A stretch of 40,493 nt of DNA from a virus (IMGVR_UViG_3300020159_003753:1-40493); one strand, 5' to 3'. Positions 11,277 to 39,998 are shown, counted from the stretch's first letter. The notes: generated by a model not told the origin, from the letters alone. Made by a program: numbers and translations.

Positions 11277-13349
11277 ATGGCTAATTCAGATGCAAAACTC
11301 AAAGTCGCAGAACTAGACTTTGATAAAATTCGAGATAATCTAAAGGCTTATCTCAAGTCTCAATCAGAATTTAGCGATTATAATTTTGAAGGATCAGGCA
11401 TGTCTGTGCTTCTTGATCTTCTTTCATATAATACTCATTATATGGGATATTATTTGAATATGGTTGCTAATGAGATGTTTATTGATACTGCACTCACTCG
11501 TCAGTCTGTTGTGTCTCATGCTAAACTTCTTGGATATACTCCTCGCTCTAGAGTTGCTGCTCGCGCTGCAGTTGATCTGACAATTACTCCAGTTGCAAAC
11601 GACTCAAACAGTGCTGTTCTAATTCCTCGATTTACTCGCTTTGTTTCTGAGAGCAAGGATGGCGCCAACTATGTTTTTGTTACGCCATCAAGCAGAATTG
11701 CAACAAAAAATTCTGATACTGGATTGTTTGTAGTTGAAAATGTAGAAATCAAAGAAGGACAGCCAACTGGATTCACATTCGCATATGATGAGCAAACAAA
11801 CCCAAAACAGTATTTTGAAATTCCTGATGGGGGAATTGATACTGAAACACTAAAAGTTTCTGTTCAAGTATCAGCAGAAAATGCCAATTTAGAATCATAT
11901 ACATTATCTCAAGACGCGACAGATGTTGATGCAAATGCAAGAGTTTATTATCTTGAAGAAAATAAGAATGGAAAATATCAAATCTATTTCGGTGATGGAA
12001 TTATCGGAAAGAAATTGACAAATGGTAATATTGTTGTCGTATCTTATATTGTAACTAGCGGATCTGATGCAAATGGATTGCGCTCGTTCAAACTTCTCGA
12101 TACCATTTTAGGCGGAAATACATCAGTAGATGTCACACTAGTGAATGAATCTTCTTCTGGTGCTGCTGCAGAAACTATCGATAAGATTCGCTTTACTGCT
12201 CCAAAGGCATACATTTCTCAAAATCGTGCTGTAACAAAGAACGATTATATTGCTCTTGTAAATCGCGATTATCCATATTTTGATGCAGTCAATGTATGGG
12301 GTGGTGAGGAAGTGAATCCTCCTGTATATGGAAAGGTATTCTTCTCAGCAAAGCCACTTGGTGGATATGAGATTACTGCAACTGAAATTGAACATGTCAA
12401 AACAAATATTCTAAAGCCATTCAGTGTTCTTACTGTGACACCAGAATATGTTCCAGCTGATTATAACTATGTGAATGTGCGCGCTGAAGTTTGGTATGAT
12501 CCAACAAAAACCAATAAAACTTCTTCTGAGGTCAACGCTGCAGTTATTGCTGCAATTCGCGGTTTTGCATCAACAAATCTAAACAGTTTCAATTCTATCT
12601 TTAGAGTTTCTCAGATTTCTAGAGCTGTTGATGACTGCGACAATTCAATTGTCAGCAATGATATCTTCATCTCTCTCGAGAAACGTTTCTTTGCTGATAG
12701 CACGAAACGTCTATCTTATACACTTGATTTCAATACTGAACTGATCCAAGGAACAGTGAGTGATCATATACAAATTACTCCATCATTCAAATACTATGAT
12801 GAGACTGGTGTCTTGAGAGATTGCTATATCGAAGAAGTTATCCAATCATACACTGGAGTTGATGACATTTCTGTTCTTGCTCCAGGTAGTGGGTATACAA
12901 CAACACCTGAAGTAATCATCGAAGGTGATGGACAAGGCGCAACAGCTGAAGCACTGATTGTAAATGGACAAATAAAGAAAATTGTGGTCACAAATACTGG
13001 TTCTGATTATACATCAGCAAGCGCAAGAGTTGTTGGTGGTGGTGGAGTTGGCGCTCTACTTGATGTAAACCTTCAGGGAAGAACTGGTCGTCTAAAGATC
13101 TATTACTTTGACGAAGTTTCTCCAGTAAAGAAAACAATTGATGCAAATATCGGTGTCATTGATTATAAAACAGGTATTGTGAAAATCAACAATTTCCAAC
13201 CTGTTTCTGTATCTGATCCGTTTGGAACTCTAGTCGTTCATGCAATACCAGCAAGAAAAGTATTCTCATCGTCACAAAATAAAATTGTGACTATGGATCT
13301 ATCTGATCCTGGAAGCGTAACAACAGTCATTACACCAGTTGTGGGCTAA
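11277..13349 (+). CDS. gp6: Baseplate wedge subunit gp6 (baseplate J-like)
   Basis: A 690-aa protein (T4 gp6 is 660 aa). The N-terminus SDYNFEGSGMSVLLDLLSYN, followed by THYMGYYLNMVANEMFIDTA and SVVSHAKLLGYTPRS, is the gp6/baseplate J start. Later, YQIYFGDGIIGKKLTNGN and KAYISQNRAVTKNDYIALV are also typical. gp6 dimers form the continuous inner ring of the baseplate. Residues about 530-600 contain an extra GSGYTTTPEVIIEG module that recurs in the neighbouring wedge proteins. It begins directly after gp25 and is 2 bases from gp7, so these are cotranscribed. Confidence 0.92.
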   Translation: MANSDAKLKVAELDFDKIRDNLKAYLKSQSEFSDYNFEGSGMSVLLDLLSYNTHYMGYYLNMVANEMFIDTALTRQSVVSHAKLLGYTPRSRVAARAAVDLTITPVANDSNSAVLIPRFTRFVSESKDGANYVFVTPSSRIATKNSDTGLFVVENVEIKEGQPTGFTFAYDEQTNPKQYFEIPDGGIDTETLKVSVQVSAENANLESYTLSQDATDVDANARVYYLEENKNGKYQIYFGDGIIGKKLTNGNIVVVSYIVTSGSDANGLRSFKLLDTILGGNTSVDVTLVNESSSGAAAETIDKIRFTAPKAYISQNRAVTKNDYIALVNRDYPYFDAVNVWGGEEVNPPVYGKVFFSAKPLGGYEITATEIEHVKTNILKPFSVLTVTPEYVPADYNYVNVRAEVWYDPTKTNKTSSEVNAAVIAAIRGFASTNLNSFNSIFRVSQISRAVDDCDNSIVSNDIFISLEKRFFADSTKRLSYTLDFNTELIQGTVSDHIQITPSFKYYDETGVLRDCYIEEVIQSYTGVDDISVLAPGSGYTTTPEVIIEGDGQGATAEALIVNGQIKKIVVTNTGSDYTSASARVVGGGGVGALLDVNLQGRTGRLKIYYFDEVSPVKKTIDANIGVIDYKTGIVKINNFQPVSVSDPFGTLVVHAIPARKVFSSSQNKIVTMDLSDPGSVTTVITPVVG

Positions 13350-28086: not shown

Positions 28087-30303
28087 ATGCCAAAAAGAAT
28101 TGATGAGTTAGTCAAGACATGGGTTTCTGGCGCGCAGCGTGGAAGCACTGTCTTCAATACTCATGGAACAATGAGTGTGCCATATGGCAGAAACAGAATG
28201 ACTGTTTCTGGTCGTGGTGGTTCAGGAAATTGCCTTGTTCCAGGCAATATTGCAACGTATACTGGAAATAGTGCGGCGTCTTATAATGTTGGTTCTCCAG
28301 CATCATACAATCCTGGATCTGCTGCAACATATACAGGAAATAGTGCCAATTACAATTTTGGTAATCCTGCATCATATACAGGAAACACAGAAATACCTGC
28401 TAGTGGTGGGAATAATGCAAATTATAATCCTTGTGTGACAACATATAATCCACCTCTCATTTCGGGATATAATGCAGGTGGTTTCGGTGGAGCATTATAC
28501 AATACAGGAAATATTGCTGGCTACACTATCGGAAATATTTCTGGATACAATACAGGAGTTGGCACAACATATAATGCGCCAACTCCAGGTGGTTATAATC
28601 CTAGAACAATTAGTGGATACAACTCAGGATCTGCTTCATATACACCTGGTAGCATAGCAGGTTATGTGCCTGGTACAAATAATATCGCATCATACTCTGG
28701 TAATAGTGCTGCATATAACACTGGCAATCCAGTTGGATATACTGGTAACACAATTTCTGCATATAATCCAGGAAACCCAGCAACATACAATCCAGCGCAA
28801 GTGAATTGGTATGGTGTCATTATTGAGACATTCTTCGATGAGGGATATTATTACTATCAACAAATTGCATTTGAAGGAAATGGAACGTCAATTGGATGTC
28901 CACTACCAAATGATGGTAGTGTGGTTACGCCAACCAACTTCCCCAATTTTCCAGGATTTGTTGTTGGTGGTGGTCAAATGGTTTATTTCTATGACCTCAA
29001 CTTCTCATGTTCTCCAGCATTTCCTGGAAACCCAGCAACATACAATCCAGGAACTGCTGTTTATAATCCTGGAAACCCAAGCAGTTATAACCCAACAAAT
29101 ATTTCTGGTTATAATGCAGGTTCTGCATCAACATATAATGCTGGCACAATCTCCGCATATACTGGCAATATTGTTGGTGGATATACTGGAAATAATGCAA
29201 ATTATAATACTGGCAATCCTTCTGGATATACTGCTGGTAACGCAAATGCATACAGCGATAACAACTCAATATACAATCAGCCAACCGCTAATTATAATGC
29301 AGGCAATATCACAAGTTACCAAGGAAACACTGCAGTTTATACACCTGGTAATGTTGCGGGTCTAGATTGTTCTGGAGCAACAATTACTGGATATAATCCA
29401 ATTGGTGGATCAAATCCATTGTATAATCCAGGTAACCCTGCATCATATACTGACAATAATATAAGTGGATATAATCCTGGCGCCCAGACATACAATACTG
29501 GAAATGTTGATTATAATCCTGGCACTCCATCTGGATATACAGGAAATAACGTAGCATCATATAATGCTGCTGGAAATGCAAATTATAATACTGGATCAAC
29601 AGCAACATATAATCCAACAAGTATTGCTAATTATAATCCTGGCGTTCCTGGAACTTATACAGGAAACAATATTGACACATATAACTCAGCAGGAAATAAT
29701 CCAGTATATAATACTGGAACTCAAGTCTATAATGCTGGAAGTCCAAGTAATAGTGGCGGTAATCCTGCAACTTACAATGAAGGCGTATGTGCCTCATATA
29801 GCGGAAACAACATTGCTAGTTATAACCCACCAAGTGGTGGTGGCGGTAACTGTTGCTTTGTTGCTGGAACTCTTGTTACGATGTCAGATCTCACGACTAA
29901 AGCGATTGAGGAGATCGTTATTGGAGACAAGATTCTATCATTCAATGAATCAACCAACGAACTTGAAACCAATGAGGTTGAGACATTACTTGCTCCAATT
30001 CGAACAGAAATCTTTGAATATATTCTTGAAACTGGTCAAGTTATTCGTGCTACAGATGATCACCCAATGTTTGTACAAAATAAGGGATGGGCTTCGCTCA
30101 ATCCAGCAAAGACGTTATCAAGTTATAAGAACATGACAAATATCCACTTTGTAGAGGTTGGCGATCAATTCATCGATATGAATCAAAATGCATTGAAGAT
30201 TGTTTCTATTGGAAGTGTAAATACAACAGAGAAAGTTTATACCTTTACCAATAAAAATAAGTCTAGCCCAAACTATTTTGCTAATGGAGTTCTTGTAGGC
30301 TAA
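28087..30303 (+). CDS. Tyr-Asn-Pro-Gly repeat fibre, N-terminal half, ending in a Hint domain
   Basis: A 738-aa protein. Residues 1-50 (VKTWVSGAQRGSTVF, then VSGRGG) form a cap shared with the 760-aa protein at 33304. Residues about 52-585 are 7-8-residue units such as ASYNPGS, ATYTGNS and ANYNTGN, each built round a Tyr. They are interrupted at about residues 238-315 by a non-repeat insert rich in Tyr and Phe (FFDEGYYYYQQIAFEGNGTS). Residues 590-738 are a Hint (hedgehog/intein) domain (CFVAGTLV, TDDH, NYFANGVLVG). The stop TAA overlaps the ATG of the next gene, whose protein goes straight on with the same repeats. I read the two genes as one fibre split at the end of an intein-like domain. 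It is probably a tail fibre or virion adhesin; the function is not proven. Confidence 0.85.
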   Translation: MPKRIDELVKTWVSGAQRGSTVFNTHGTMSVPYGRNRMTVSGRGGSGNCLVPGNIATYTGNSAASYNVGSPASYNPGSAATYTGNSANYNFGNPASYTGNTEIPASGGNNANYNPCVTTYNPPLISGYNAGGFGGALYNTGNIAGYTIGNISGYNTGVGTTYNAPTPGGYNPRTISGYNSGSASYTPGSIAGYVPGTNNIASYSGNSAAYNTGNPVGYTGNTISAYNPGNPATYNPAQVNWYGVIIETFFDEGYYYYQQIAFEGNGTSIGCPLPNDGSVVTPTNFPNFPGFVVGGGQMVYFYDLNFSCSPAFPGNPATYNPGTAVYNPGNPSSYNPTNISGYNAGSASTYNAGTISAYTGNIVGGYTGNNANYNTGNPSGYTAGNANAYSDNNSIYNQPTANYNAGNITSYQGNTAVYTPGNVAGLDCSGATITGYNPIGGSNPLYNPGNPASYTDNNISGYNPGAQTYNTGNVDYNPGTPSGYTGNNVASYNAAGNANYNTGSTATYNPTSIANYNPGVPGTYTGNNIDTYNSAGNNPVYNTGTQVYNAGSPSNSGGNPATYNEGVCASYSGNNIASYNPPSGGGGNCCFVAGTLVTMSDLTTKAIEEIVIGDKILSFNESTNELETNEVETLLAPIRTEIFEYILETGQVIRATDDHPMFVQNKGWASLNPAKTLSSYKNMTNIHFVEVGDQFIDMNQNALKIVSIGSVNTTEKVYTFTNKNKSSPNYFANGVLVG
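28240..29838 (+). repeat. YNPG/YSGN-type coding repeat array, interrupted by an insert
   Basis: The DNA encodes about 60 degenerate units of 7-8 residues centred on Tyr, for example ASYNPGS, NYNTGNP and GYTGNN. Many DNA copies contain TATAATCCAGG-like 10-12-mers because YNPG is coded with similar codons. The array breaks at about 28800-29030 for a non-repeat insert. It is a protein repeat, not a CRISPR or intergenic repeat. Confidence 0.9.
29851..30300 (+). other. Hint (hedgehog/intein) domain without the C-terminal HN of an intein
   Basis: The protein segment opens CCFVAGTLVTMSDLTT; Cys590 is the expected N-terminal nucleophile. The block-B motif is RATDDHPMF (Thr656, His659). The last block is YFANGVLVG, directly before the stop codon. 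Active inteins usually end in His-Asn followed by Cys, Ser or Thr. Here Val-Gly and a stop replace them, so full splicing is not expected. Known family behaviour suggests only the N-to-S acyl shift at Cys590, leading to cleavage or transfer of the repeat part to a nucleophile. Confidence 0.88.
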
Positions 30304-31688
30304 TGGCATATAATCCAGGAAATCCAGCAACATATAACCCGACTACTGCGGTTTACAATTCACCAATACCAGGTGGAGTGTACTGGTCAGCATCATTTTA
30401 TGTCGCTGCGGTTGACCTTGATGTTTTATTTCCTAACGATCCAGTTGGTCCTTATCCACAAAATGGTATGGGACCATTACCAAGTCCGCTAAATGCATAT
30501 CTCAATTACGCAGATCATGGTGATGGAAGCATAGGTCCAACAGCTGTTTATGTTTACTATACTTCTTTTGGATTTACTCCTCAAACTCCTGGCACAGATA
30601 CAGGAGCATACAATGCTGGTAATCCTGCAACATATTCTGGAAATACAGAAATACCACCAGAAGTTCCAGGTAATGCAGTATACAATCCAGGAACATGCGC
30701 AACATATTCTGGAAATAACACTGCATCATACAATCCAGTAGTTACAAACTACACTGGAAACAATTGGACTGGTGGCTATAACCCAACGAATATTTCTGGT
30801 TACAATGCTGGAAGTGGAATTGTGAACTGGAACGCAACAATTTACTATGAAGTAGAAAAAAGAATTTCTGCTCCTGGACAAGACCTAGAGTATTCAGTAT
30901 TTGTAAGTGATACAAACTATGCTTCTGGTTCAAATCCAACTTGCCCAGCGCCAGCATCAACTACAAATGGCAACATAAACAGCGTATCTGTTGGATTACA
31001 ATATTATGAAGTCGATTATGTTTGCACACCATCACCAGCAACAAATACAGCCAACTACAACGTTGGTAGTCCAGCAAACTATATTGGAAACACTGAGAAT
31101 TATAACGCTGGCAATCCTGCAACCTATTCAGGCAATAATATTGATGTGTATAATTCTGGTGGAAATCCAGCAACATATAATGCGGGCACTCCATCTGGGT
31201 ATACTGGTAACAATTCTGGTGGATATTCTGGAAATACTGGAACTGGAAGTTATGTCAGCAACAGCGCAAATTATAACTCAGGAAATCCAGCATCATACAG
31301 CGGTAACAATATCAGCGGCTACAATGCTGCTCCTCCACCAAGTTACAATGTTGGAAACCCAGCAACTTATCAAAGCAACACAATCAGTGGATATAATGTA
31401 GGAAATATTGCAACATATACAGGAAACTTCACTGGAAGTTATTCTGGTAATTTTGCATCATCTTATAATCCAGGAAGCGCAAGTACATATAACTTCCCAA
31501 TTCCAGGAACTCCTGGAGAGCCTGGATATGCCTTTGGTGTATACTTCCCAGGTGGTTCTGTTTGTGCTCCAGGAACTTATGTTTCACCTCAATCTATCAG
31601 TTACTATTTCGAGGGTCAAGAAATTGACTACAAGAATTATCCAGTAGTCGTTCCTCCAGGTGGACAAATAGTTGTAACAGTCGAATAA
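30303..31688 (+). CDS. Tyr-Asn-Pro-Gly repeat fibre, C-terminal half
   Basis: A 461-aa protein opening directly with repeats (MAYNPGNPATYNP) and no N-terminal cap. It contains two non-repeat inserts: residues about 20-95 (GGVYWSASFYVAAVDLDVLF) and residues about 176-255 (VNWNATIYYEVEKR). It ends in a cap (FGVYFPGGSVCAPGT; YPVVVPPGGQIVVTVE) shared with the 760-aa protein at 33304 (YPVTVPSGGQIVVKIE). It starts in TAATG at the stop of the Hint gene, so translation is probably coupled. Residues of the upstream protein without its Hint domain, plus this one, equal a longer relative of the 760-aa fibre. It is followed by a leader and an oxygenase gene. Fibre role inferred. Confidence 0.82.
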   Translation: MAYNPGNPATYNPTTAVYNSPIPGGVYWSASFYVAAVDLDVLFPNDPVGPYPQNGMGPLPSPLNAYLNYADHGDGSIGPTAVYVYYTSFGFTPQTPGTDTGAYNAGNPATYSGNTEIPPEVPGNAVYNPGTCATYSGNNTASYNPVVTNYTGNNWTGGYNPTNISGYNAGSGIVNWNATIYYEVEKRISAPGQDLEYSVFVSDTNYASGSNPTCPAPASTTNGNINSVSVGLQYYEVDYVCTPSPATNTANYNVGSPANYIGNTENYNAGNPATYSGNNIDVYNSGGNPATYNAGTPSGYTGNNSGGYSGNTGTGSYVSNSANYNSGNPASYSGNNISGYNAAPPPSYNVGNPATYQSNTISGYNVGNIATYTGNFTGSYSGNFASSYNPGSASTYNFPIPGTPGEPGYAFGVYFPGGSVCAPGTYVSPQSISYYFEGQEIDYKNYPVVVPPGGQIVVTVE

Positions 31689-31734
31689 ATAAGTTATAAT
31701 TCTATATTCATGCACTAATGCAGTGGAGTTTGTT
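31683..31734 (+). promoter_or_regulatory. Late-promoter-like leader of the first oxygenase gene
   Basis: AATAAATA at 31684-31691 matches the cyanophage-type late motif NATAAATA and is followed by GTTATAAT (31693-31700). GTGGAG at 31723-31728 is a good ribosome binding site 6 bases before ATG 31735. The whole block is nearly repeated at 35581-35626 before the second oxygenase, which supports a shared function. The GTG inside GTGGAG is unlikely to be the start. Confidence 0.65.
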
Positions 31735-32298
31735 ATGCCTCAAGTCATCAAATATAATCGCGTTCTATCTAAATTTGCTGTCGCGTCTGACTTTCTCAAT
31801 CAAGAAGAAGTTGATATTCTTCTTAGTATTGAGAAAAAACTGATGTTTGGTAAAGACCAACAAAATAGCAAAAATAAAGCAGACATCGCAATCGTCACTC
31901 CAAACCAAGAAACGCAATGGGTGTTCGATAAATTTTCTTCAGTTATTGGTAGAATCAATATCGATTTCTTTATGTACGATATTGATGGATTTGACTCATT
32001 TCAATTTGTAAAGTATAAAAAGGGGCAAGATTGCGGTTGGCATTACGATGTTGACTTTGCATATATGAATTGGGAACGCAAAATTTGTGCCTCAATTATT
32101 CTTACTGATCCAGAAGAATATTTGGGCGGTGAACTTGAAGTTATGTCAACAGCTGATCCAGAAGAAGTTGTTCCACTAAAACCTGCACTCGGCGATATAG
32201 TGTTTTATGCACCTTGGATGCCAGCTAGGGTTTCTCCAGTAACATCTGGAATTCGTAGAACTCTCAACACTTGGGTCATGGGCAAGAGAGGTTGTTAA
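31735..32298 (+). CDS. Prolyl-4-hydroxylase-like 2OG-Fe(II) oxygenase, missing the distal His
   Basis: A 187-aa protein of the double-stranded beta-helix P4Hc type. Metal ligands expected are HxD (WHYDVD: His103, Asp105) and a distal His. The paralogue at 35627 has WMPHRV, but here the sequence is WMPARV, Ala164. The 2-oxoglutarate-binding Arg174 (SGIRRTL) is kept. Loss of one iron ligand should weaken or end normal hydroxylase activity, so this copy may be inactive, regulatory or altered in chemistry. It follows a YNPG-repeat gene and a promoter-like leader, and is joined to the glycosyltransferase gene by a TAATG overlap. The start is ATG 31735, preceded by GTGGAG. The family match is strong; the substrate is inferred. 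Confidence 0.88.
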   Translation: MPQVIKYNRVLSKFAVASDFLNQEEVDILLSIEKKLMFGKDQQNSKNKADIAIVTPNQETQWVFDKFSSVIGRINIDFFMYDIDGFDSFQFVKYKKGQDCGWHYDVDFAYMNWERKICASIILTDPEEYLGGELEVMSTADPEEVVPLKPALGDIVFYAPWMPARVSPVTSGIRRTLNTWVMGKRGC

Positions 32299-33260
32299 TG
32301 AAAATATTTGTCAGCATTGTCTCTTATAGAGACCCACTACTCTATCAAACTGTAAAGAATTTGATGGACAATCAATCGCAGCTGACAAAGGTCACATATG
32401 GGATTTTTGAGCAAACTGATTTCCCAGAAAGTTTAGAGTCAATGCATCCAGAAATTACTCAACATAAAAATGTTCGGTATAAAAGAATTGACGCGAAATA
32501 TTCAGACGGTGTCGGTTGGGCAAGACATCTAAATTCACTTCAAGTGGACGACGAAGATTTTTATTATCAAGTCGATTCTCACATGCTGTTTGATAAAAAT
32601 TGGGATCGATATCTAATCAACGATTTCAAACTTGGGATTCAGCAACATCAAACAGATCGTATCATTATTGATGCGAATTGCGGCAACTTTAGAATGCAAG
32701 AAGATGGAACTCCATGGATCGATCGTCATGGATCAATTACGGTAAAGGCAGGTTATTGGTCTTTCCACGAAAACTATATTCTTGGAGCGCATGGAGAGTT
32801 TAGAGAAGCAACTACAGATTTCTTACATCCAACAATTCATCTATTTGCAGGTAACTTCTTTACTCATTCTGATTGGGTTCGAAATGTTGGGATGAATCCA
32901 AGAATCTTCTTCGAAGGAGAAGAACAATACATGACTTTGGCTTCGATCGCTGCTGGATATAAACTCTGCGCGCCTAGACAAATTCACTGCTATCACCTGC
33001 AGGATACGCATAATTATATTACAAAACAAGATGTAAATCGAGTCGTTCCATCTGAACAAATTCAAAGAAATCGTGAAAAATCGAAAAAAGAATTCCAGAT
33101 GTTCTTAGACAGTCTCAGTGATGAATTCTTCGAAGAATACCGTAAATATTCTGGGGTAGATTATATCAATCGAAAACTTGAGAATCGTGCGATATCAAGA
33201 AGTATTATTCTTCCTCCAAACGTGGTGAACGATTGGGAGATTCCTGATCGATACGATTGA
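32298..33260 (+). CDS. GlcNAc-type glycosyltransferase (PF11397/GT60-like), candidate hydroxyproline glycosylator
   Basis: A 320-aa protein starting at ATG 32298 in TAATG; an in-frame ATG at 32271 lies inside the previous gene and is not preferred. KIFVSIVSYRDPLLYQTVKN opens it like other GlcNAc (PF11397) proteins, followed by GVGWARHLN, YYQVDSHMLFDKNWD with the DxH-type motif Asp93-Ser-His95, FAGNFFTHSDWVRNVG, FFEGEEQYMTL and HCYH (230-233), a possible further metal ligand. The founding member, Dictyostelium Gnt1 (GT60), adds GlcNAc to a hydroxyproline of Skp1 made by a prolyl 4-hydroxylase. Here it is coupled to P4H-like genes and placed between two Pro-Gly repeat fibres, so glycosylation of fibre hydroxyproline is the natural guess. 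The donor sugar and acceptor are not shown by sequence. Confidence 0.87.
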   Translation: MKIFVSIVSYRDPLLYQTVKNLMDNQSQLTKVTYGIFEQTDFPESLESMHPEITQHKNVRYKRIDAKYSDGVGWARHLNSLQVDDEDFYYQVDSHMLFDKNWDRYLINDFKLGIQQHQTDRIIIDANCGNFRMQEDGTPWIDRHGSITVKAGYWSFHENYILGAHGEFREATTDFLHPTIHLFAGNFFTHSDWVRNVGMNPRIFFEGEEQYMTLASIAAGYKLCAPRQIHCYHLQDTHNYITKQDVNRVVPSEQIQRNREKSKKEFQMFLDSLSDEFFEEYRKYSGVDYINRKLENRAISRSIILPPNVVNDWEIPDRYD

Positions 33261-33303
33261 TTCGGAAATACTAAATATCCAAACTAGCCATGGATTTTAG
33301 TAG

Positions 33304-35586
33304 ATGCCACTACATACAGACCTGTTGAAAAGTTGGGTTGGGTCCGCTTTGCGCACAACGACCACTTTCAATAACACTTCCAGCATAACAATTCCATACG
33401 GAAGGTTCAACGCTCTTGTTTCTGGGCGTGGTGGTACTGGCACAAATGCAACTCCTGGCACTGCTGCAACTTATTCTGGAAATAGTGCTGCATCTTACAA
33501 TTCAGGAAGCCCAGCGACTTATAATGTCGGCAACGTCGCCTCGTATTCTGGAAATACTGTTTCTGGATACAATGCAGGAAATCCAGCATCATATAATCCT
33601 CCAGTTCCTGCAAGTTATACAGGAAACAACGCAAACTATAATTCTGGAAATCCAGCATCATATAGCGGCAACAATCCTGCTTCATATTCTGGAAATAATG
33701 CCAACTATAATGCTGGTAGTGCTGCATCATATTCAGGAAACAACATTGCTTCATATAATCCTCGCAATGTCGCTGGATATAATGCTGGTAATATTGCATC
33801 GTACAATCCCACAAATATTGCTGCATATTCTGGAAATAATGCAAACTATAATGCTGGAACTCCTGCATCATATAATCCTCAGACTATATCCGCATACAAT
33901 CCAGGTTCTGCAAACTATAACCCTGGATCACCAGCATCATATTCTGGAAACAATCTTGCTGGATACTCTGGTAACAGTGCAAATTATAATGCAGGCAACG
34001 TAGCATCTTACAATCCGCAAAACGTAGCAGCATATAATCCAGGATCTGCAAATTACAATGCTGGTAATGCTGCAACATATAATGCACCAACTGTGGCCAA
34101 CTACAATCCAGGTTCCGCAAACTATAACGCTGGAACTGTAGCATCATATAATCCAGGAAGTATTGCTTCTTACAATCCACGCAACGTTGCTGGATACTCT
34201 GGTAACAACGCAAACTTCAGTCCAGGAAACGTTGCATCATATAACCCACGCAACGTTGCTGGATATTCTGGAAACAATCAAAATACAAATCCAGCCAATC
34301 CAGCATCCTGGATTTCAATGTTTTATGTGAATGATACTGGAATGGCTTATTTGTTTGGGGATGAAATAGTTTATATTGGACCAACAGCTTATCCGCAAAG
34401 TGGTGGTGGTTCTGCGCCTGGACCAACCAATGCTTATGGATCTACAAATGAGCTCGGTACTGTTAACGTGTATATTACATACCAGCAAATTCCAGGAGAA
34501 CCAGGAAATCCGACTGGTGTTTATAATCCAGGATCTGCAAATTACAATGCTGGTAATGCTGCAACCTATAACTCACCAACTGTAGCAAATTATAATGCAG
34601 GTTCAGCAAATTACAACGCTGGCACTGCTGCAAGTTATTCTGGTAACACTATTGCTTCGTATAATCCACGCAATGTGGCAGGATATTCTGGCAATAATGC
34701 AAACTTCACACCAGGAAATGTTGCATCATATAATACTCGCAACATTGCTGGCTATTCTGGAAATGATGCAAACTATAACACTGGAACAGTAGCATCATAC
34801 AATCCTCGTAACGTAGCAACATATAATCCAGGATCAGCAAATTACAATACTGGCTCACCAGCATCATATTCTGGAAACAATCTTGCTGGTTATTCTGGAA
34901 ACAGTGCGAACTATAACACTGGAACACCAGCATCGTATAATCCAAGAAACGTTTCCACATACAATCCAGGAAGCGCAAACTACAATGCTGGTAGTGCTGC
35001 AACATATTCTGGTAACAACATTTCTGGTTATAATGTTGGCAACGCAGCAACATATAATCCTGGATCAATTGCTTCGTATTCTGGAAATAATCTTGCCAAT
35101 TATAATGCAGGCAATCCAGCAACATACAATCCTGGAAATCCTGCAACATACACAGGAAATAATTTGGCAAATTATAATGCTGGCAATCCAGCAAGTTATA
35201 ATCCTCCTGTGCCTGCATCCTATAGTGGAAATAACATTTCAGGATACAATGCTGGCAATCCAGCAACATACAATCCACAAAATCCTGCATCATATTCTGG
35301 CAATACAGCTGCTACATATAATGCAGGTAGTGTGGCAACATACAATCCACCAATTCTTGGTACTCCTGGAACCGCAACAAATGTTCTTGGTGTATATTTC
35401 CCAGGTGGCGCTGGTGCTTCAGCAAATTATAATGCAGCACCAGGAAGTACAATTGCTGGATACAATGCAGGTCAACTAGCACCATATGTGCCAGAAACAC
35501 CTGTTGATACTAATGTTTACCCAGATTCAGCAAACTACCCAGTAACGGTTCCATCTGGTGGACAAATAGTTGTAAAGATTGAATAA
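33304..35586 (+). CDS. Complete Tyr-Asn-Pro-Gly repeat fibre (760 aa)
   Basis: Residues 1-45 are the cap (LLKSWVGSALRTTTTF, IPYGRFNALVSGRGG) shared with the 738-aa protein. About 85 repeat units of 7-8 residues follow (ASYNPGS, NYNAGNP, GYSGNNA). One non-repeat insert lies at about residues 335-405 (WISMFYVNDTGMAYLFGDE). The C-terminal cap (LGVYFPGGAG; YPVTVPSGGQIVVKIE) matches the 461-aa protein. It has no Hint domain, so it represents the unsplit form. The composition is almost only Tyr, Asn, Gly, Ala, Ser, Pro; Pro usually precedes Gly (NPG), the sequence prolyl 4-hydroxylases prefer. Upstream (33270-33277) ACTAAATA is one mismatch from the late motif. It is probably a surface fibre; the mechanism is unknown. 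Confidence 0.85.
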   Translation: MPLHTDLLKSWVGSALRTTTTFNNTSSITIPYGRFNALVSGRGGTGTNATPGTAATYSGNSAASYNSGSPATYNVGNVASYSGNTVSGYNAGNPASYNPPVPASYTGNNANYNSGNPASYSGNNPASYSGNNANYNAGSAASYSGNNIASYNPRNVAGYNAGNIASYNPTNIAAYSGNNANYNAGTPASYNPQTISAYNPGSANYNPGSPASYSGNNLAGYSGNSANYNAGNVASYNPQNVAAYNPGSANYNAGNAATYNAPTVANYNPGSANYNAGTVASYNPGSIASYNPRNVAGYSGNNANFSPGNVASYNPRNVAGYSGNNQNTNPANPASWISMFYVNDTGMAYLFGDEIVYIGPTAYPQSGGGSAPGPTNAYGSTNELGTVNVYITYQQIPGEPGNPTGVYNPGSANYNAGNAATYNSPTVANYNAGSANYNAGTAASYSGNTIASYNPRNVAGYSGNNANFTPGNVASYNTRNIAGYSGNDANYNTGTVASYNPRNVATYNPGSANYNTGSPASYSGNNLAGYSGNSANYNTGTPASYNPRNVSTYNPGSANYNAGSAATYSGNNISGYNVGNAATYNPGSIASYSGNNLANYNAGNPATYNPGNPATYTGNNLANYNAGNPASYNPPVPASYSGNNISGYNAGNPATYNPQNPASYSGNTAATYNAGSVATYNPPILGTPGTATNVLGVYFPGGAGASANYNAAPGSTIAGYNAGQLAPYVPETPVDTNVYPDSANYPVTVPSGGQIVVKIE
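33450..35355 (+). repeat. Long YNPG/YSGNN coding repeat array
   Basis: Degenerate 21-24-bp DNA units encode 7-8-residue protein units with one Tyr each. Some stretches are nearly identical at a distance, for example the block encoding YNPGSANYNAGNAATYN occurs near 34036 and again near 34525, suggesting internal duplication. The array is broken once by a non-repeat insert at about 34300-34520. Confidence 0.9.
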
Positions 35587-35626
35587 ATATAGTATAATTT
35601 GATATTGCAAATGTAGTGGAGTGAAT
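35581..35626 (+). promoter_or_regulatory. Late-promoter-like leader of the second oxygenase gene
   Basis: AATAAATA at 35582-35589 overlaps the stop codon of the repeat fibre and is followed by GTATAATTTGATATT. GTGGAG at 35616-35621 lies 5 bases before ATG 35627. The leader matches the one at 31683-31734 in order and much of the sequence (GAATAAATA, TATAATT, ATATT, AGTGGAGT), so the two oxygenase genes seem to carry copies of the same control region. Confidence 0.65.
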
Positions 35627-36226
35627 ATGGCATTCAAAGTGCAAAAGTATGTTCGACGCTTAGAACAATATTGCGTCGTAAATAAAGCATTCACTGAAGA
35701 TGAGTGCGACAAGATCATCGATCTTGAAGATCTACAAAAGTTCCAAAAAGGTGGCGTTGGAAGCGGACCGCAAGGAAAGGTGGATAAGAAGGCTCGTGAT
35801 AGTGATATCATGTGGCTTATGCAAGATCAAAACTCGGATTGGATTTTCCAAAAATTTGGTCATCTAGTTTCTCTTGTCAACTATGATCACTTCATGTATA
35901 ATATCGATGGCTTCGAAGCCTTTCAGTATACTGTATATAAAGCCAAAAATAAACAACACTATGATTGGCATATCGATGCTGATAATACTAGCGCCAACTA
36001 CATTCGTAAAATAAGTGCATCTATTATTCTTACAGACCCTGACGATTATGATGGCGGAGAATTGCAAGTCGTTCCTCATGGACGAGTTGATGATCCATTC
36101 AGTGTAAAATCAAAACGTGGTGATGTTGTATTCTTTTCTTCTTGGATGCCCCATCGTGTTTCTCCAGTAACCTCTGGTATTCGCAAATCATTGGTATGTT
36201 GGGTTATGGGCGAAAGGACTCATTGA
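35627..36226 (+). CDS. Prolyl-4-hydroxylase-like 2OG-Fe(II) oxygenase with complete metal site
   Basis: A 199-aa paralogue of the 31735 protein (shared blocks YNIDGFEAFQ, KISASIILTDPDDYDGGEL, SPVTSGIRKSL). All expected ligands are present: His115-x-Asp117 (WHIDAD), His176 (WMPHRV) and the 2-oxoglutarate-binding Arg186, ten residues after the distal His as in P4H-type enzymes. It should hydroxylate a protein or peptide using O2, Fe(II) and 2-oxoglutarate. Proline in the NPG repeats of the gene just upstream is the best candidate. The ATG at 35627 is preferred over GTG at 35621, which belongs to GTGGAG. Next gene starts one base after the stop. Substrate inferred. Confidence 0.9.
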   Translation: MAFKVQKYVRRLEQYCVVNKAFTEDECDKIIDLEDLQKFQKGGVGSGPQGKVDKKARDSDIMWLMQDQNSDWIFQKFGHLVSLVNYDHFMYNIDGFEAFQYTVYKAKNKQHYDWHIDADNTSANYIRKISASIILTDPDDYDGGELQVVPHGRVDDPFSVKSKRGDVVFFSSWMPHRVSPVTSGIRKSLVCWVMGERTH

Positions 36227-36227
36227 T

Positions 36228-36974
36228 ATGAAAAATTGGTTCAAAGTTTGGGGCAATGATGTGATGGAATTCTATTGCCATCCTGATTTTGAGGATATTA
36301 TTCCTCCTCCTCGTCCAGCAGTAAAATATCTTCCGAAATGGTTCAAAGATCTTGCGCCAACATTTGATGCTGGTAAACGAGATATTTTTGGTAATCCAAC
36401 AATGACTGCAAAGAAATGTTTGCCAATGCTCGATGCAATGTCTTTAGGATTCACAATGCCACTTGCTGGTGATTTACACGTTTCAACAAATCATAACTGC
36501 ACTCAAATCGAAATCAAAAATCCGCCAGCATTTGCTGTTGCAGAGTTTCATGATGCTGCTCAGGTTGGTGGAAAGGCTGCGCTTGGATTCAAACATGGTA
36601 ATCCAATCAAATTCATCAACCGTTGGGTGATCAAGACAAAGCCAGGTTGGTCGACTTTGTTTATTCCTCCAGTCAATCACTTTGATCAACCATTTAGATG
36701 TTTGGGTGGATATGTTGATACTGATGAGTATCCAAAAGAAGTAAATTTCCCTGGTGCGTGGCTTGTTCCAGACTTCGACGGAAGTATTCCTGCAGGAACT
36801 CCATTGGTAACAGCAATTCCAATAAAGCGAAACTCTTTCAACAATAAAAAACCAAAGATCAGAAAGATGATGCCAAGCGAACAAAGAAAGATTTTGAAAA
36901 TACAAAAAACACAAGAGAGCCGCACTCACCACTATACTTGGGAATTGAGAAAGAGAAAACACGAAGATGAGTAA
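36228..36974 (+). CDS. Unknown beta-rich protein, paralogue of next gene (DUF6065-like look)
   Basis: A 248-aa protein. Features seen are HPDFEDIIPPPRPAVKYLPK, a KKCLPMLDAMSLGF block, RWVIKTKPGWSTLFIPPVNH, GGYVDTDEYP and DGSIPAGTPLVTAIPIKR, then a basic C-terminal tail (MPSEQRKILKIQKTQE). The order resembles proteins of the DUF6065 type, but I cannot verify this. It shares its layout (Cys-x-x-Met-x-Asp, then Pro-Ala-Gly-Thr-Pro near the end) with the 267-aa protein that follows, so they are distant paralogues. AAGGA 11 bases upstream serves as the binding site, and the gene follows the second oxygenase after one base. A role with the oxygenase/glycosyltransferase set is possible from context only. 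Confidence 0.72.
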   Translation: MKNWFKVWGNDVMEFYCHPDFEDIIPPPRPAVKYLPKWFKDLAPTFDAGKRDIFGNPTMTAKKCLPMLDAMSLGFTMPLAGDLHVSTNHNCTQIEIKNPPAFAVAEFHDAAQVGGKAALGFKHGNPIKFINRWVIKTKPGWSTLFIPPVNHFDQPFRCLGGYVDTDEYPKEVNFPGAWLVPDFDGSIPAGTPLVTAIPIKRNSFNNKKPKIRKMMPSEQRKILKIQKTQESRTHHYTWELRKRKHEDE

Positions 36975-37770
36975 ATTATTCAATATCTTTTCAAAGAGTG
37001 ATGTGCCTGACCTGCAATTTGTCGATAGCACAAGACAAGTCTACACGCACTATCCAGTTCTGATGGCAAAAGATGTAAAACCATTTTTCAAAGAATTTCA
37101 AGAAAAAGAACAAGGAACATATAACTTTCCAGGATGTCCTGGAATGCACGATTACTCGCGCATGGGTTATTTGATTACTGCATGGATTGATATTCATATC
37201 AAAGCAAACAAAGCAGGTACTGTAATTCGTCTTGGTACTGATTCTAGAGATAAAGGCGCAAAACCAAAAGGAACACCATTTCAAAATCCAATGGAAATTG
37301 CACCACCGCAACTCGAAATTAGAGACGCATTTCCAATGTCAACTGATGTAACAAATGGAATGTTTACATTCAAGGATGATATTAAACCTACTGCTTGGAA
37401 CATGCCTGGACCGTGGAAAATCTTTGGTAAAAAAAATGTTTCTGCACTTCTTCTTCCTGCATACTATCATTGCCCATTTCTAGATGACTTATACCTATAT
37501 CCTGGGGTTGTGGACTATCGAGAGTTTACAACCGCAAATATCATCTTCTCTCCGAAGAAAAAGATTGAGATCACAATTCCTGCAGGAACTCCGATGTTAC
37601 ACGTGATTCCTTTCAAGACTACTGAAGATTTTAGTGCATCATATGGTCCAGGAACAGTGGAGCAGTTAGATTCGCATAAATCGCCTAAGAAATTCTACGA
37701 AAGTAACTGGTATCGAAAGTATTATATGATCAAAAAGAAGTTCAAACTAGAGAAAATCACTGGAGATTGA
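36967..37770 (+). CDS. Unknown protein, paralogue of the preceding gene
   Basis: A 267-aa protein. It shows FPGCPGMHDYSRMGYLITAW, PTAWNMPGPWKIFG, LLLPAYYHCPFLDDLYLYPG and KIEITIPAGTPMLHVIPFK, aligning by order with the 248-aa protein upstream (notably IPAGTP followed by a hydrophobic strand and IPxK). The C-terminus is basic (YRKYYMIKKKFKLEKI). Its ATG lies inside the previous gene (8-base overlap), so the pair is translationally coupled. Cupin-like or jelly-roll folds would fit the strand pattern, but no full metal-binding motif is visible. Function unknown. Confidence 0.7.
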   Translation: MSKLFNIFSKSDVPDLQFVDSTRQVYTHYPVLMAKDVKPFFKEFQEKEQGTYNFPGCPGMHDYSRMGYLITAWIDIHIKANKAGTVIRLGTDSRDKGAKPKGTPFQNPMEIAPPQLEIRDAFPMSTDVTNGMFTFKDDIKPTAWNMPGPWKIFGKKNVSALLLPAYYHCPFLDDLYLYPGVVDYREFTTANIIFSPKKKIEITIPAGTPMLHVIPFKTTEDFSASYGPGTVEQLDSHKSPKKFYESNWYRKYYMIKKKFKLEKITGD

Positions 37771-38165: not shown

Positions 38166-39998
38166 ATGACTTCGATAAAGGTTACTGCAGCTAACCCGAC
38201 CATTCGAACCACAGTAAATCCAACTGACACTTCTCAAGTAAAGGTTTCAACTGCTCGTGGTGGCGCTGGTCCACAAGGTCCTGGTGGTCCTCAAGGACCA
38301 ACTGGTCCTCAGGGTGTTGCTGGACCAACAGGACCATCAGGCGGTCCTCAGGGACCAAGTGGACCGTCTGGTCCATCTGGTGCATCTGGTCCAAGTGGAC
38401 CAAGCGGTGCTTCTGGTCCGAGTGGTCCGAGTGGTCCATCTGGCGTTCGTGGTCCAACAGGTCCTCAAGGACCACAAGGTGAAATTGGACCGCAAGGTCC
38501 ATCTGGTCCATCAGGTATTCGTGGTCCACAAGGTCCACAAGGCGCGATTGGTGCAACAGGACCGCAAGGTCCATCTGGTCCATCTGGTCCTCAAGGTGCG
38601 CAGGGTTTTGCTGGTCCTCAAGGTCCATCTGGACCAAGAGGTCTTGTTGGTGCTGCGGGTCCTCAAGGACCAACAGGCGTTACTGGATCAACTGGTGCTC
38701 AAGGTCCACAGGGACCAACAGGTGTAACAGGTTCTCGTGGTCCACAAGGACCAACTGGCGCAACAGGCAATACAGGCGCAACTGGTCCAACGGGACCAAG
38801 TGGTGCGCAAGGCGATAGAGGTTTTGCTGGACCACAAGGTCCAACTGGTGCGCAGGGTTTAGTTGGTGCTCGTGGTCCAACTGGTGTTACTGGTGACACA
38901 GGAGCAACAGGTCCGCAAGGTCCAACTGGCGCACAAGGTCCAGCTGGTGCTCGTGGTCCACAAGGTCCGCAAGGACCAACAGGTGCAACAGGTGCTCAAG
39001 GTCCAACAGGTCCATCTGGAGCACAAGGTGATAGAGGTTTTGCTGGACCACAAGGTCCAACTGGTGCGCAAGGTCTAGTTGGTTCAGCTGGTCCACAAGG
39101 TCCATCTGGACCGCAAGGATTGATAGGCGCGCAAGGACCAACTGGTCCTCGTGGTCCACAGGGCATTGCAGGTCCACAAGGTCCTCGTGGTGCTTCTGGT
39201 GCATTGCAACATTGGGCAGTTGTAACATATAATTATACTGCAAGTGATGGTGATCGACTTGTTGCAAATACAACAGTCAATGGTCCATTTACAATTACAT
39301 TACCAAATACGCCAGTTGCTGGTGGTTATGTGCAAGTTACTGATGGTGATAATTGGAATACAAATCCAGTTTATGTCACATCATTAGATAATACGATTGA
39401 AGGTCAGAGTCAGCCAGTCTCACTTGACATTCGTGGTGTGACTGTAGAATTTATTTACAATGGAACAACTTGGGAAGTTACTGCAACAACTGGTCGTCGT
39501 GGACCGCAAGGTGTCAAAGGACCGCAGGGACCAATTGGTCCACAAGGACCAAAAGGTGATCGAGGTTTCTCAGGTCCACAAGGACCTCAAGGTCCATCTG
39601 GTCCACAAGGAAGTTTAGGTCCGCAAGGTCCATCTGGTCCTTCTGGACCACAAGGTGAGCGTGGCGGCAGTATTCGTATTTCTGGCACTGTGCCAAACAC
39701 TAATGTTCTTTTTGCGATCACTGGAGCATCTGTTGGTGAAGCGTACATTGTAACAGCATCTGGTCATATTTGGATTTGGGATGATTGTCCTGGTCCTGCT
39801 CAGTGGATGGATGCAGGTCCATTTATTGGTCCAACTGGTCCAACTGGTCCCACAGGAACTGTCGGTCCACAAGGTCCACAAGGAACAACTGGTCCACAAG
39901 GACCTCAAGGACCAATCACAGCATATACATTTGATGGCGGATCGCCAATAAATAATTACACTAACGGTCCTGCCTTTGATTGCGGCGGAGTAAACTAA
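38166..39998 (+). CDS. Collagen-like tail fibre
   Basis: A 610-aa protein. After a 34-residue head ([20 protein letters not shown]), residues about 35-345 are Gly-x-y triplets ([10 protein letters not shown]), followed by a globular domain (residues about 346-442: [32 protein letters not shown]), a second triplet stretch (about 443-500), a second small domain ([36 protein letters not shown]) and a short third stretch. Collagen-like phage proteins form trimeric fibre shafts. I see Pro always at the first place after Gly (G-P-Q/S/T), not before Gly, apart from the short GPG near residue 39. Adjacent to the P4H and glycosyltransferase genes. It ends exactly where the next gene starts. Confidence 0.92.
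38268..39200 (+). repeat. Collagen-like Gly-x-y coding repeat
   Basis: About 104 triplets [15 protein letters not shown] and similar, with one visible interruption (GPSGGPQ). GGTCCA, GGACCA and GGTCCTCAAGG-like words repeat throughout. The local GC is higher than in the neighbourhood because Gly and Pro codons dominate. Further triplet stretches lie at about 39492-39665 and 39827-39915. Confidence 0.93.
39947..39954 (+). promoter_or_regulatory. Possible late promoter motif before the last gene
   Basis: AATAAATA matches the NATAAATA form and lies 44 bases before ATG 39999, inside the 3' end of the collagen gene. The same motif appears by chance inside other AT-rich genes, so the evidence is only positional. 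Confidence 0.35.

What the first reader, a model, noticed from the sequence alone, without database searches (positions are those of the whole stretch)
28087..37770. Candidate phage pathway for hydroxyproline glycosylation of Pro-Gly fibres
Seen: two P4H-like oxygenase genes (31735, 35627) each directly follow a Tyr-Asn-Pro-Gly repeat fibre gene, and a GlcNAc/GT60-like glycosyltransferase (32298) is translationally coupled to the first oxygenase. Known: in eukaryotes a prolyl 4-hydroxylase makes hydroxyproline on Skp1, and the GT60 founder Gnt1 puts GlcNAc on it. Inference: the phage encodes a two-step 'hydroxylate, then glycosylate' modification for its own fibre repeats, where Pro precedes Gly as P4H enzymes prefer. 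This might harden, solubilise or disguise the fibre. I know of no described phage system of this form.
Basis: partly seen in the sequence, partly recalled or inferred. Interest (0 to 1): 0.93.

Follow-up and report, generated by a model that had tools for sequence, protein, structure and literature searches.

The report
Phage tail-fibre chemical modification cassette
Aquatic tailed phages carry a conserved gene block in which a repetitive fibre gene is followed by an oxygenase, two DUF6065-family proteins and a swappable protein-modifying enzyme (usually a sugar transferase, sometimes a sulfate transferase), so these phages probably decorate their own fibres chemically, but the idea that the mark is sugar on hydroxyproline in Pro-Gly units is not supported.

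Summary
The genes are real and at the stated coordinates. The GT (32298-33260) hits PF11397 (E 2.6e-28); its model (pLDDT 94) is nearest to polypeptide GalNAc-transferases. Both oxygenases are PF13640, closest to PKHD/PiuC hydroxylases and then P4H. Their linkage is the strong result: fibre-OX-Da-Db-GT recurs in IMG/VR contigs, and all 38 distinct loci with enough upstream sequence have the oxygenase. In GT-less cassettes another modifying enzyme appears (sulfotransferase, or JmjC plus a second oxygenase). That supports a modular fibre-modification locus.

(1) The oxygenase coupled to the GT (31735) has lost the distal iron-binding His (Ala/Ser in its whole clade; His in every other homologue scanned), though it is under purifying selection; the intact oxygenase is 35627. 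(2) Pro-Gly is not the common denominator: several GT-bearing fibres have 0-1 PG per 100 residues, while sulfotransferase-only fibres have the most. Tyr/Phe-Asn is the dipeptide enriched in GT-bearing fibres. (3) GT60 enzymes also use Thr, so hydroxyproline is not implied.

Best reading: ox2 hydroxylates repeat side chains and the GT glycosylates a hydroxyl on the fibre, residue unknown. No published description was found in the papers searched.

The parts
28087..30303 (+). Repeat fibre 1, 738 aa, degenerate Tyr-octad repeats, C-terminal Hint domain (residues ~589-738)
   Evidence: conserved N-terminal fibre domain
30303..31688 (+). Repeat fibre 2, 461 aa, conserved C-terminal fibre domain; PG not above chance
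31735..32298 (+). ox1: 2OG-Fe(II) oxygenase paralogue, HxD present, distal His replaced by Ala; purifying selection
   Evidence: PF13640
32298..33260 (+). Glycosyltransferase, PF11397, DSH motif, fold nearest polypeptide GalNAc-transferases; starts in the TAATG overlap with ox1
33304..35586 (+). Repeat fibre 3, 760 aa, Tyr-octad repeats, conserved N- and C-terminal fibre domains
35627..36226 (+). ox2: 2OG-Fe(II) oxygenase with complete HxD...H and Arg; the oxygenase type found in all cassettes
   Evidence: PF13640
36228..36974 (+). Da: DUF6065 (PF19541), phrog_7084; weak dUTPase-like (beta-clip) fold match
36967..37770 (+). Db: DUF6065-related paralogue, phrog_7084; overlaps the Da gene by 8 bp
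38166..39998 (+). Collagen-like tail fibre (neighbour; poor substrate for a collagen-type P4H: no Pro in the Y position)
   Evidence: PF01391; 80 of 132 GXY triplets have X=P, none Y=P

Best explanation
The region is a phage fibre-modification cassette. SHOWN: a repeat fibre gene, a 2OG oxygenase, a pair of DUF6065-like proteins and a PF11397 glycosyltransferase form a conserved co-oriented block in many aquatic phage contigs, and loci without the GT carry a sulfotransferase or additional JmjC/2OG oxygenases instead. INFERRED: the enzymes act on the neighbouring fibre. The ox2-type oxygenase hydroxylates side chains in the Tyr-rich repeats. The GT, a retaining polypeptide O-glycosyltransferase by fold, adds a sugar to a hydroxyl on the same fibre, either the new one or a Ser/Thr. 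Da/Db act as fibre-binding or assembly partners. ox1 is a non-catalytic or altered paralogue kept as a partner or scaffold. The modified residue and the sugar are unknown.
For: Conserved gene order in distinct contigs. All 38 Db loci with at least 3.5 kb upstream have OX, and all but three have a fibre detected by HMM; the exceptions seen have a repeat fibre by inspection. PF11397 and DSH motif. Fold nearest polypeptide GalNAc-Ts, E 1e-11. ox2 active site intact. Cassette genes co-diverge, Mantel rho 0.27-0.70, each above its null maximum. PF03567 sulfotransferase in the slot between OX and Da of GT-less L218, with a homologue in L216/L108/L109/L213. JmjC plus 2OG-Oxy_5 in the other GT-less group. 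Fibre repeat type shifts with enzyme set: Tyr/Phe-Asn 3.1-11.4 per 100 aa in 36 GT+ fibres vs 0-3.2 in the six JmjC cassettes. An isolate cyanophage, S-CREM1, has a Db-like gene beside a tryptophan halogenase and a run of 2OG/JmjC oxygenases downstream of a gene annotated collagen-like.
Against: No chemistry was observed. Independent evolutionary contrasts for GT versus repeat type are only two, and the Tyr/Phe-Asn threshold used there was set after seeing the data. GT and sulfotransferase coexist in L019 and L022, so they are not strictly alternative. One GT at 41% identity (L036) follows a large non-cassette protein with no oxygenase. Da-type genes occur alone in haloarchaeal viruses, so DUF6065 is not specific to fibre modification.
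Confidence: 0.6

Rival explanations
1. The GT and the oxygenase both modify the fibre but independently: the GT glycosylates Ser/Thr (or Tyr) in the repeats directly, like GalNAc-Ts or the T. cruzi GT60 enzyme, and the oxygenase hydroxylates another residue (Pro, Asn or other). There is no hydroxylate-then-glycosylate order.
For: Fold nearest Ser/Thr polypeptide GalNAc-Ts. GT60 includes T. cruzi polypeptide alpha-GlcNAc-T (PMC6939170). Ser+Thr are 9-41% of all GT+ fibre cores. L036 has a GT with no oxygenase beside it.
Against: Near-constant physical linkage of the close GT clade to OX, and the use of another hydroxyl-directed enzyme (sulfotransferase) in GT-less cassettes, fit a hydroxyl-supplying first step, though they do not prove it.
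Confidence: 0.22
2. One reading: P4H-type hydroxylation of Pro in Asn-Pro-Gly units by ox1/ox2, followed by GlcNAc transfer to hydroxyproline.
For: PF11397 contains the Skp1 Gnt1 type; Bacillus and algal P4H are secondary PDB matches; PG is enriched over shuffles in fibres 1 and 3.
Against: ox1 lacks the distal His. PG is 0-1 per 100 aa in many GT+ fibres (L009, L015, L019, L022, L083-L092, L227) and highest in GT-less sulfotransferase cassettes. PKHD/PiuC is the better profile match.
Confidence: 0.06
3. The enzymes make or decorate a host-surface polysaccharide or a small metabolite, as proposed for cyanophage clusters with halogenase, carbamoyltransferase and 2OG oxygenases.
For: Published interpretation of related cyanophage clusters (PMC7824862); 2OG oxygenases are common in cyanomyoviruses.
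Against: Constant position directly behind a repeat-fibre gene, enzyme set shifting with repeat type, polypeptide-GT fold, and no NDP-sugar or other polysaccharide genes among the ten proteins of the 28-40 kb part of the window that were profiled.
Confidence: 0.1
4. Da and Db are dUTPase-like nucleotide enzymes and the block is a chance neighbourhood of metabolic and tail genes.
For: Foldseek matches of Da to dUTPases; S-CREM1 Db-like gene annotated triphosphate nucleotidohydrolase.
Against: Match is weak (E about 1e-3, TMq about 0.3) and Pfam gives DUF6065, not dUTPase. The order is conserved across strongly diverged contigs, which is not chance.
Confidence: 0.02

Closest known systems
Skp1 PhyA-Gnt1 pathway (GT60) of Dictyostelium and Toxoplasma
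   Same: 2OG oxygenase plus PF11397-family GT on a protein substrate
   Different: Here the oxygenase is nearer PKHD/PiuC, the substrate would be a viral fibre, hydroxyproline is unshown and Pro-Gly is not conserved; linkage is by operon
Mimivirus L230/R699 collagen lysyl hydroxylation and glycosylation
   Same: A virus encoding hydroxylase and GT activities for its own repetitive protein (R699 assayed in PMC9546862; L230 from general knowledge)
   Different: Giant eukaryotic virus, collagen hydroxylysine; different GT family (general knowledge); not known as one operon behind the fibre
Polypeptide GalNAc-transferases (GT27)
   Same: Nearest solved fold, DXH motif
   Different: About 12-17% identity, only about 320 aa (no room for a lectin domain), PF11397 by sequence
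Cyanophage tail-region 2OG oxygenases (phrog_61) and halogenase/2OG clusters
   Same: Same oxygenase family, near tail genes
   Different: No PF11397 GT match in the phage isolate collection; read as polysaccharide/metabolite chemistry in PMC7824862
PKHD-type hydroxylases (PiuC/YbiX)
   Same: Best profile match of the oxygenases in PDB and NCBIfam
   Different: Far below NCBIfam cut-offs; chromosomal, not fibre-linked (general knowledge)

Membership tests
PF11397 / GT60-like glycosyltransferases | Pfam PF11397 profile above gathering score | tested here: met
   99.9 bits vs cut-off 21, E 2.6e-28
PF11397 / GT60-like glycosyltransferases | GT-A retaining fold with DXH-type metal motif | tested here: met
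   Invariant D93-S94-H95, E208, E209, H233 in 40 sequences; Foldseek to GalNAc-T at E 1e-11
PF11397 / GT60-like glycosyltransferases | UDP-GlcNAc donor and hydroxyproline acceptor (Gnt1 function) | not testable with these tools
   Needs enzyme assay; the family also holds a T. cruzi polypeptide GlcNAc-transferase
Prolyl 4-hydroxylase | 2-His-1-carboxylate iron triad (ox2) | tested here: met
   H115, D117, H176, R186
Prolyl 4-hydroxylase | 2-His-1-carboxylate iron triad (ox1) | tested here: not met
   Distal His is Ala or Ser in all six members
Prolyl 4-hydroxylase | Closest relatives are P4H rather than other 2OG hydroxylases | tested here: not met
   PiuC/PKHD 1e-9 vs P4H 4e-6 to 4e-4; NCBIfam PKHD models match, below cut-off
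Hydroxyproline-glycosylation pathway on Pro-Gly fibres | Pro-Gly repeats conserved in GT-bearing fibres | tested here: not met
   PG 0-5.5 per 100 aa, about zero in many GT+ fibres
Hydroxyproline-glycosylation pathway on Pro-Gly fibres | Oxygenase, GT and repeat fibre co-occur in relatives | tested here: met
dUTPase family (for Da) | Significant sequence or close fold match | tested here: inconclusive
   Foldseek E about 1e-3, TMq about 0.3; no dUTPase Pfam hit

The most novel reading that the evidence does not exclude
Aquatic tailed phages carry a modular post-translational modification locus for their fibres: a constant OX-DUF6065 core with swappable modifying enzymes (PF11397 glycosyltransferase, PF03567 sulfotransferase, JmjC and extra 2OG oxygenases, possibly halogenase in cyanophages) that co-evolves with rapidly changing repeat sequences to diversify receptor-facing fibre chemistry.
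Probability: 0.45. Interest if true: 0.88.

Novelty: new variant of a known kind. Interest (0 to 1): 0.72.

Why it matters
Phage fibres set host range and adsorption. A locus that rewrites fibre side chains with hydroxyl, sugar and probably sulfate groups would add a layer that sequence-only host prediction cannot see. It would also give candidate roles to two opaque groups: the 2OG oxygenases so common in aquatic phages, and DUF6065. The modular pattern makes the question directly testable by coexpression and mass spectrometry.

Tried and rejected
Collagen-like fibre 38166 as the P4H substrate: Pro is in X, never in Y, and PG occurs once. ox1 as the active hydroxylase partner of the GT: distal His lost. 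ox1 as a decaying pseudogene: dN/dS about 0.07-0.13, though dS is near saturation. A named phage isolate with the GT: none by tblastn. GT relatives in bacterial genomes are only 25-29% identical, mostly SAR86 and other Gammaproteobacteria. GT sequence profile against PDB: no hit. Papers: no hit for DUF6065, and none of the papers found by the searches run was seen to describe fibre hydroxylation plus glycosylation in phages; their full texts were mostly not read. Strict exclusivity of GT and sulfotransferase: rejected, since L019 and L022 have both.

Full report
OBSERVATION. Pfam puts both oxygenases in PF13640 and the 320-aa protein in PF11397 at 2.6e-28. The ox1 stop codon overlaps the GT start as TAATG. 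The fibres are built on a degenerate eight-residue Tyr repeat. YNPG is enriched over shuffled sequence but is a minority of units (10 of 77 Tyr sites in fibre 3), and PG is not above chance in fibre 2, the fibre directly before ox1.

RELATIVES. The GT, oxygenase and Db profiles were used to pull IMG/VR loci, and the neighbourhoods were annotated in scripts. Outside the window's own clade the order is fibre - OX - Da - Db - GT on one strand. In the window's clade the order is fibre1(Hint) - fibre2 - ox1 - GT - fibre3 - ox2 - Da - Db. After collapsing Db at 95% identity there are 51 loci: 34 have the GT right after Db, 5 have it upstream (window type), and all 38 with at least 3.5 kb upstream have OX. 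An HMM-detected fibre precedes OX in 35 of the 38; GT-less loci whose fibre the HMM missed (L119, L192, L194) have one by inspection. The loci were collected with several seeds, so these are not random-sample frequencies, but the Db-seeded scan did not select on OX or GT. Pairwise distances of GT, OX, Da and Db correlate above their permutation maxima.

GT-LESS CASSETTES. In the L108/L109/L213/L216 group and in L218 the place between OX and Da is taken by a sulfotransferase-like gene (PF03567 E 4.8e-10 in L218; a 'PKTGT' homologue with no Pfam hit in L216). In the other GT-less group (L119, L137, L151, L188, L192, L194, L198) Db is followed by a JmjC/cupin protein and a 2OG-FeII_Oxy_5 protein. 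Two GT+ loci also carry the sulfotransferase (L019, L022) and two also carry an Oxy_5 (L032, L034). The core is therefore OX plus Db (with Da in most), with modules added or exchanged.

REPEAT TYPE. Over the fibre cores, [Tyr/Phe]-Asn is 3.1-11.4 per 100 aa in all 36 GT+ fibres, 0-3.2 in the six JmjC-type cassettes, and 0.4-5.1 in the four sulfotransferase-only cassettes. Pro-Gly is 0-5.5 in GT+ (near zero in L009, L015, L019, L022, L083-L092, L227) and 7.6-12.9 in sulfotransferase-only cassettes. In L101 the aromatic is mostly Phe (FN 44, YN 10), so Tyr hydroxyl is not the sole acceptor. On a Db tree the GT state changes about three times, and in the two well-supported independent contrasts [Tyr/Phe]-Asn goes with the GT while PG does not. 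Two contrasts cannot be significant, and the threshold was chosen after seeing the data; this is suggestive only.

ENZYMES. ox2 has H115, D117, H176 and R186. All scanned homologues outside the ox1 clade have the distal His; the ox1 clade has Ala or Ser. ox1 sits on a long stem and shows dN/dS of about 0.07-0.13, so it is maintained but probably not a normal iron enzyme. The oxygenase profile is nearest PiuC/PKHD (1e-9), then Bacillus P4H (4e-6) and algal P4H (4e-4). The GT model (pLDDT 94) is nearest polypeptide GalNAc-transferases and keeps a DSH motif. GT60 contains both the Skp1 hydroxyproline enzyme and a T. cruzi polypeptide GlcNAc-transferase (PMC6939170). Da folds with moderate confidence and resembles dUTPases only weakly.

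KNOWN CONTEXT. 2OG oxygenases near tail genes are common in cyanomyoviruses, and phrog_61 proteins resembling EGLN3 are widespread in marine phages (PMC12774648). Cyanophage clusters with halogenase and 2OG oxygenases were read as polysaccharide or metabolite chemistry (PMC7824862). S-CREM1 shows a halogenase, a Db-like gene, a JmjC gene and a run of 2OG oxygenases downstream of a gene annotated collagen-like; the translated protein is Gly-rich rather than a GXY collagen. Mimivirus R699 glucosylates galactosylhydroxylysine on collagen (PMC9546862). No match to this GT was found in the phage isolate collection by tblastn.

VERDICT. A fibre-modification cassette is well supported by linkage and by exchange of modifying enzymes; the chemistry is inferred. 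The hydroxyproline/Pro-Gly/ox1 version is disfavoured.

Noticed in passing
window 29851-30303 (fibre 1 residues ~589-738): C-terminal Hint domain (AXH/Hint/intein hits; starts CFVAGT, has TDDHP, ends NYFANGVLVG) on a phage fibre; fibre 1 of L003, L004 and L006 has a matching C-terminus. Suggests self-cleavage or attachment of the fibre.
   Followed up: partly
L261 (Synechococcus phage S-CREM1) 5372-13489: Tryptophan halogenase, Db-like gene, JmjC and a run of 2OG oxygenases in a row downstream of a gene annotated collagen-like.
   Followed up: partly
L183, L182 and other Hafunaviridae records: DUF6065 (Da-like) occurs as a solo gene in haloarchaeal tailed viruses such as HF2 and HSTV-2, near the baseplate module.
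   Followed up: partly
L227-L243, minus strand, e.g. L228:13651-14961: A second OX-Da pair without a detected Db on the opposite strand, about 6 kb after the cassette start of the GT.
   Followed up: no
L036:3779-10897: A 41%-identical GT directly follows a 2042-aa protein with no oxygenase or DUF6065 nearby.
   Followed up: no
L117:11981-13552: GT ORF of 523 aa instead of about 320, possibly an extra domain.
   Followed up: no
window 11277-13349: Baseplate wedge protein nearest to Pelagibacter phage HTVC008M and Methylophilales phage Melnitz (about 40%).
   Followed up: no
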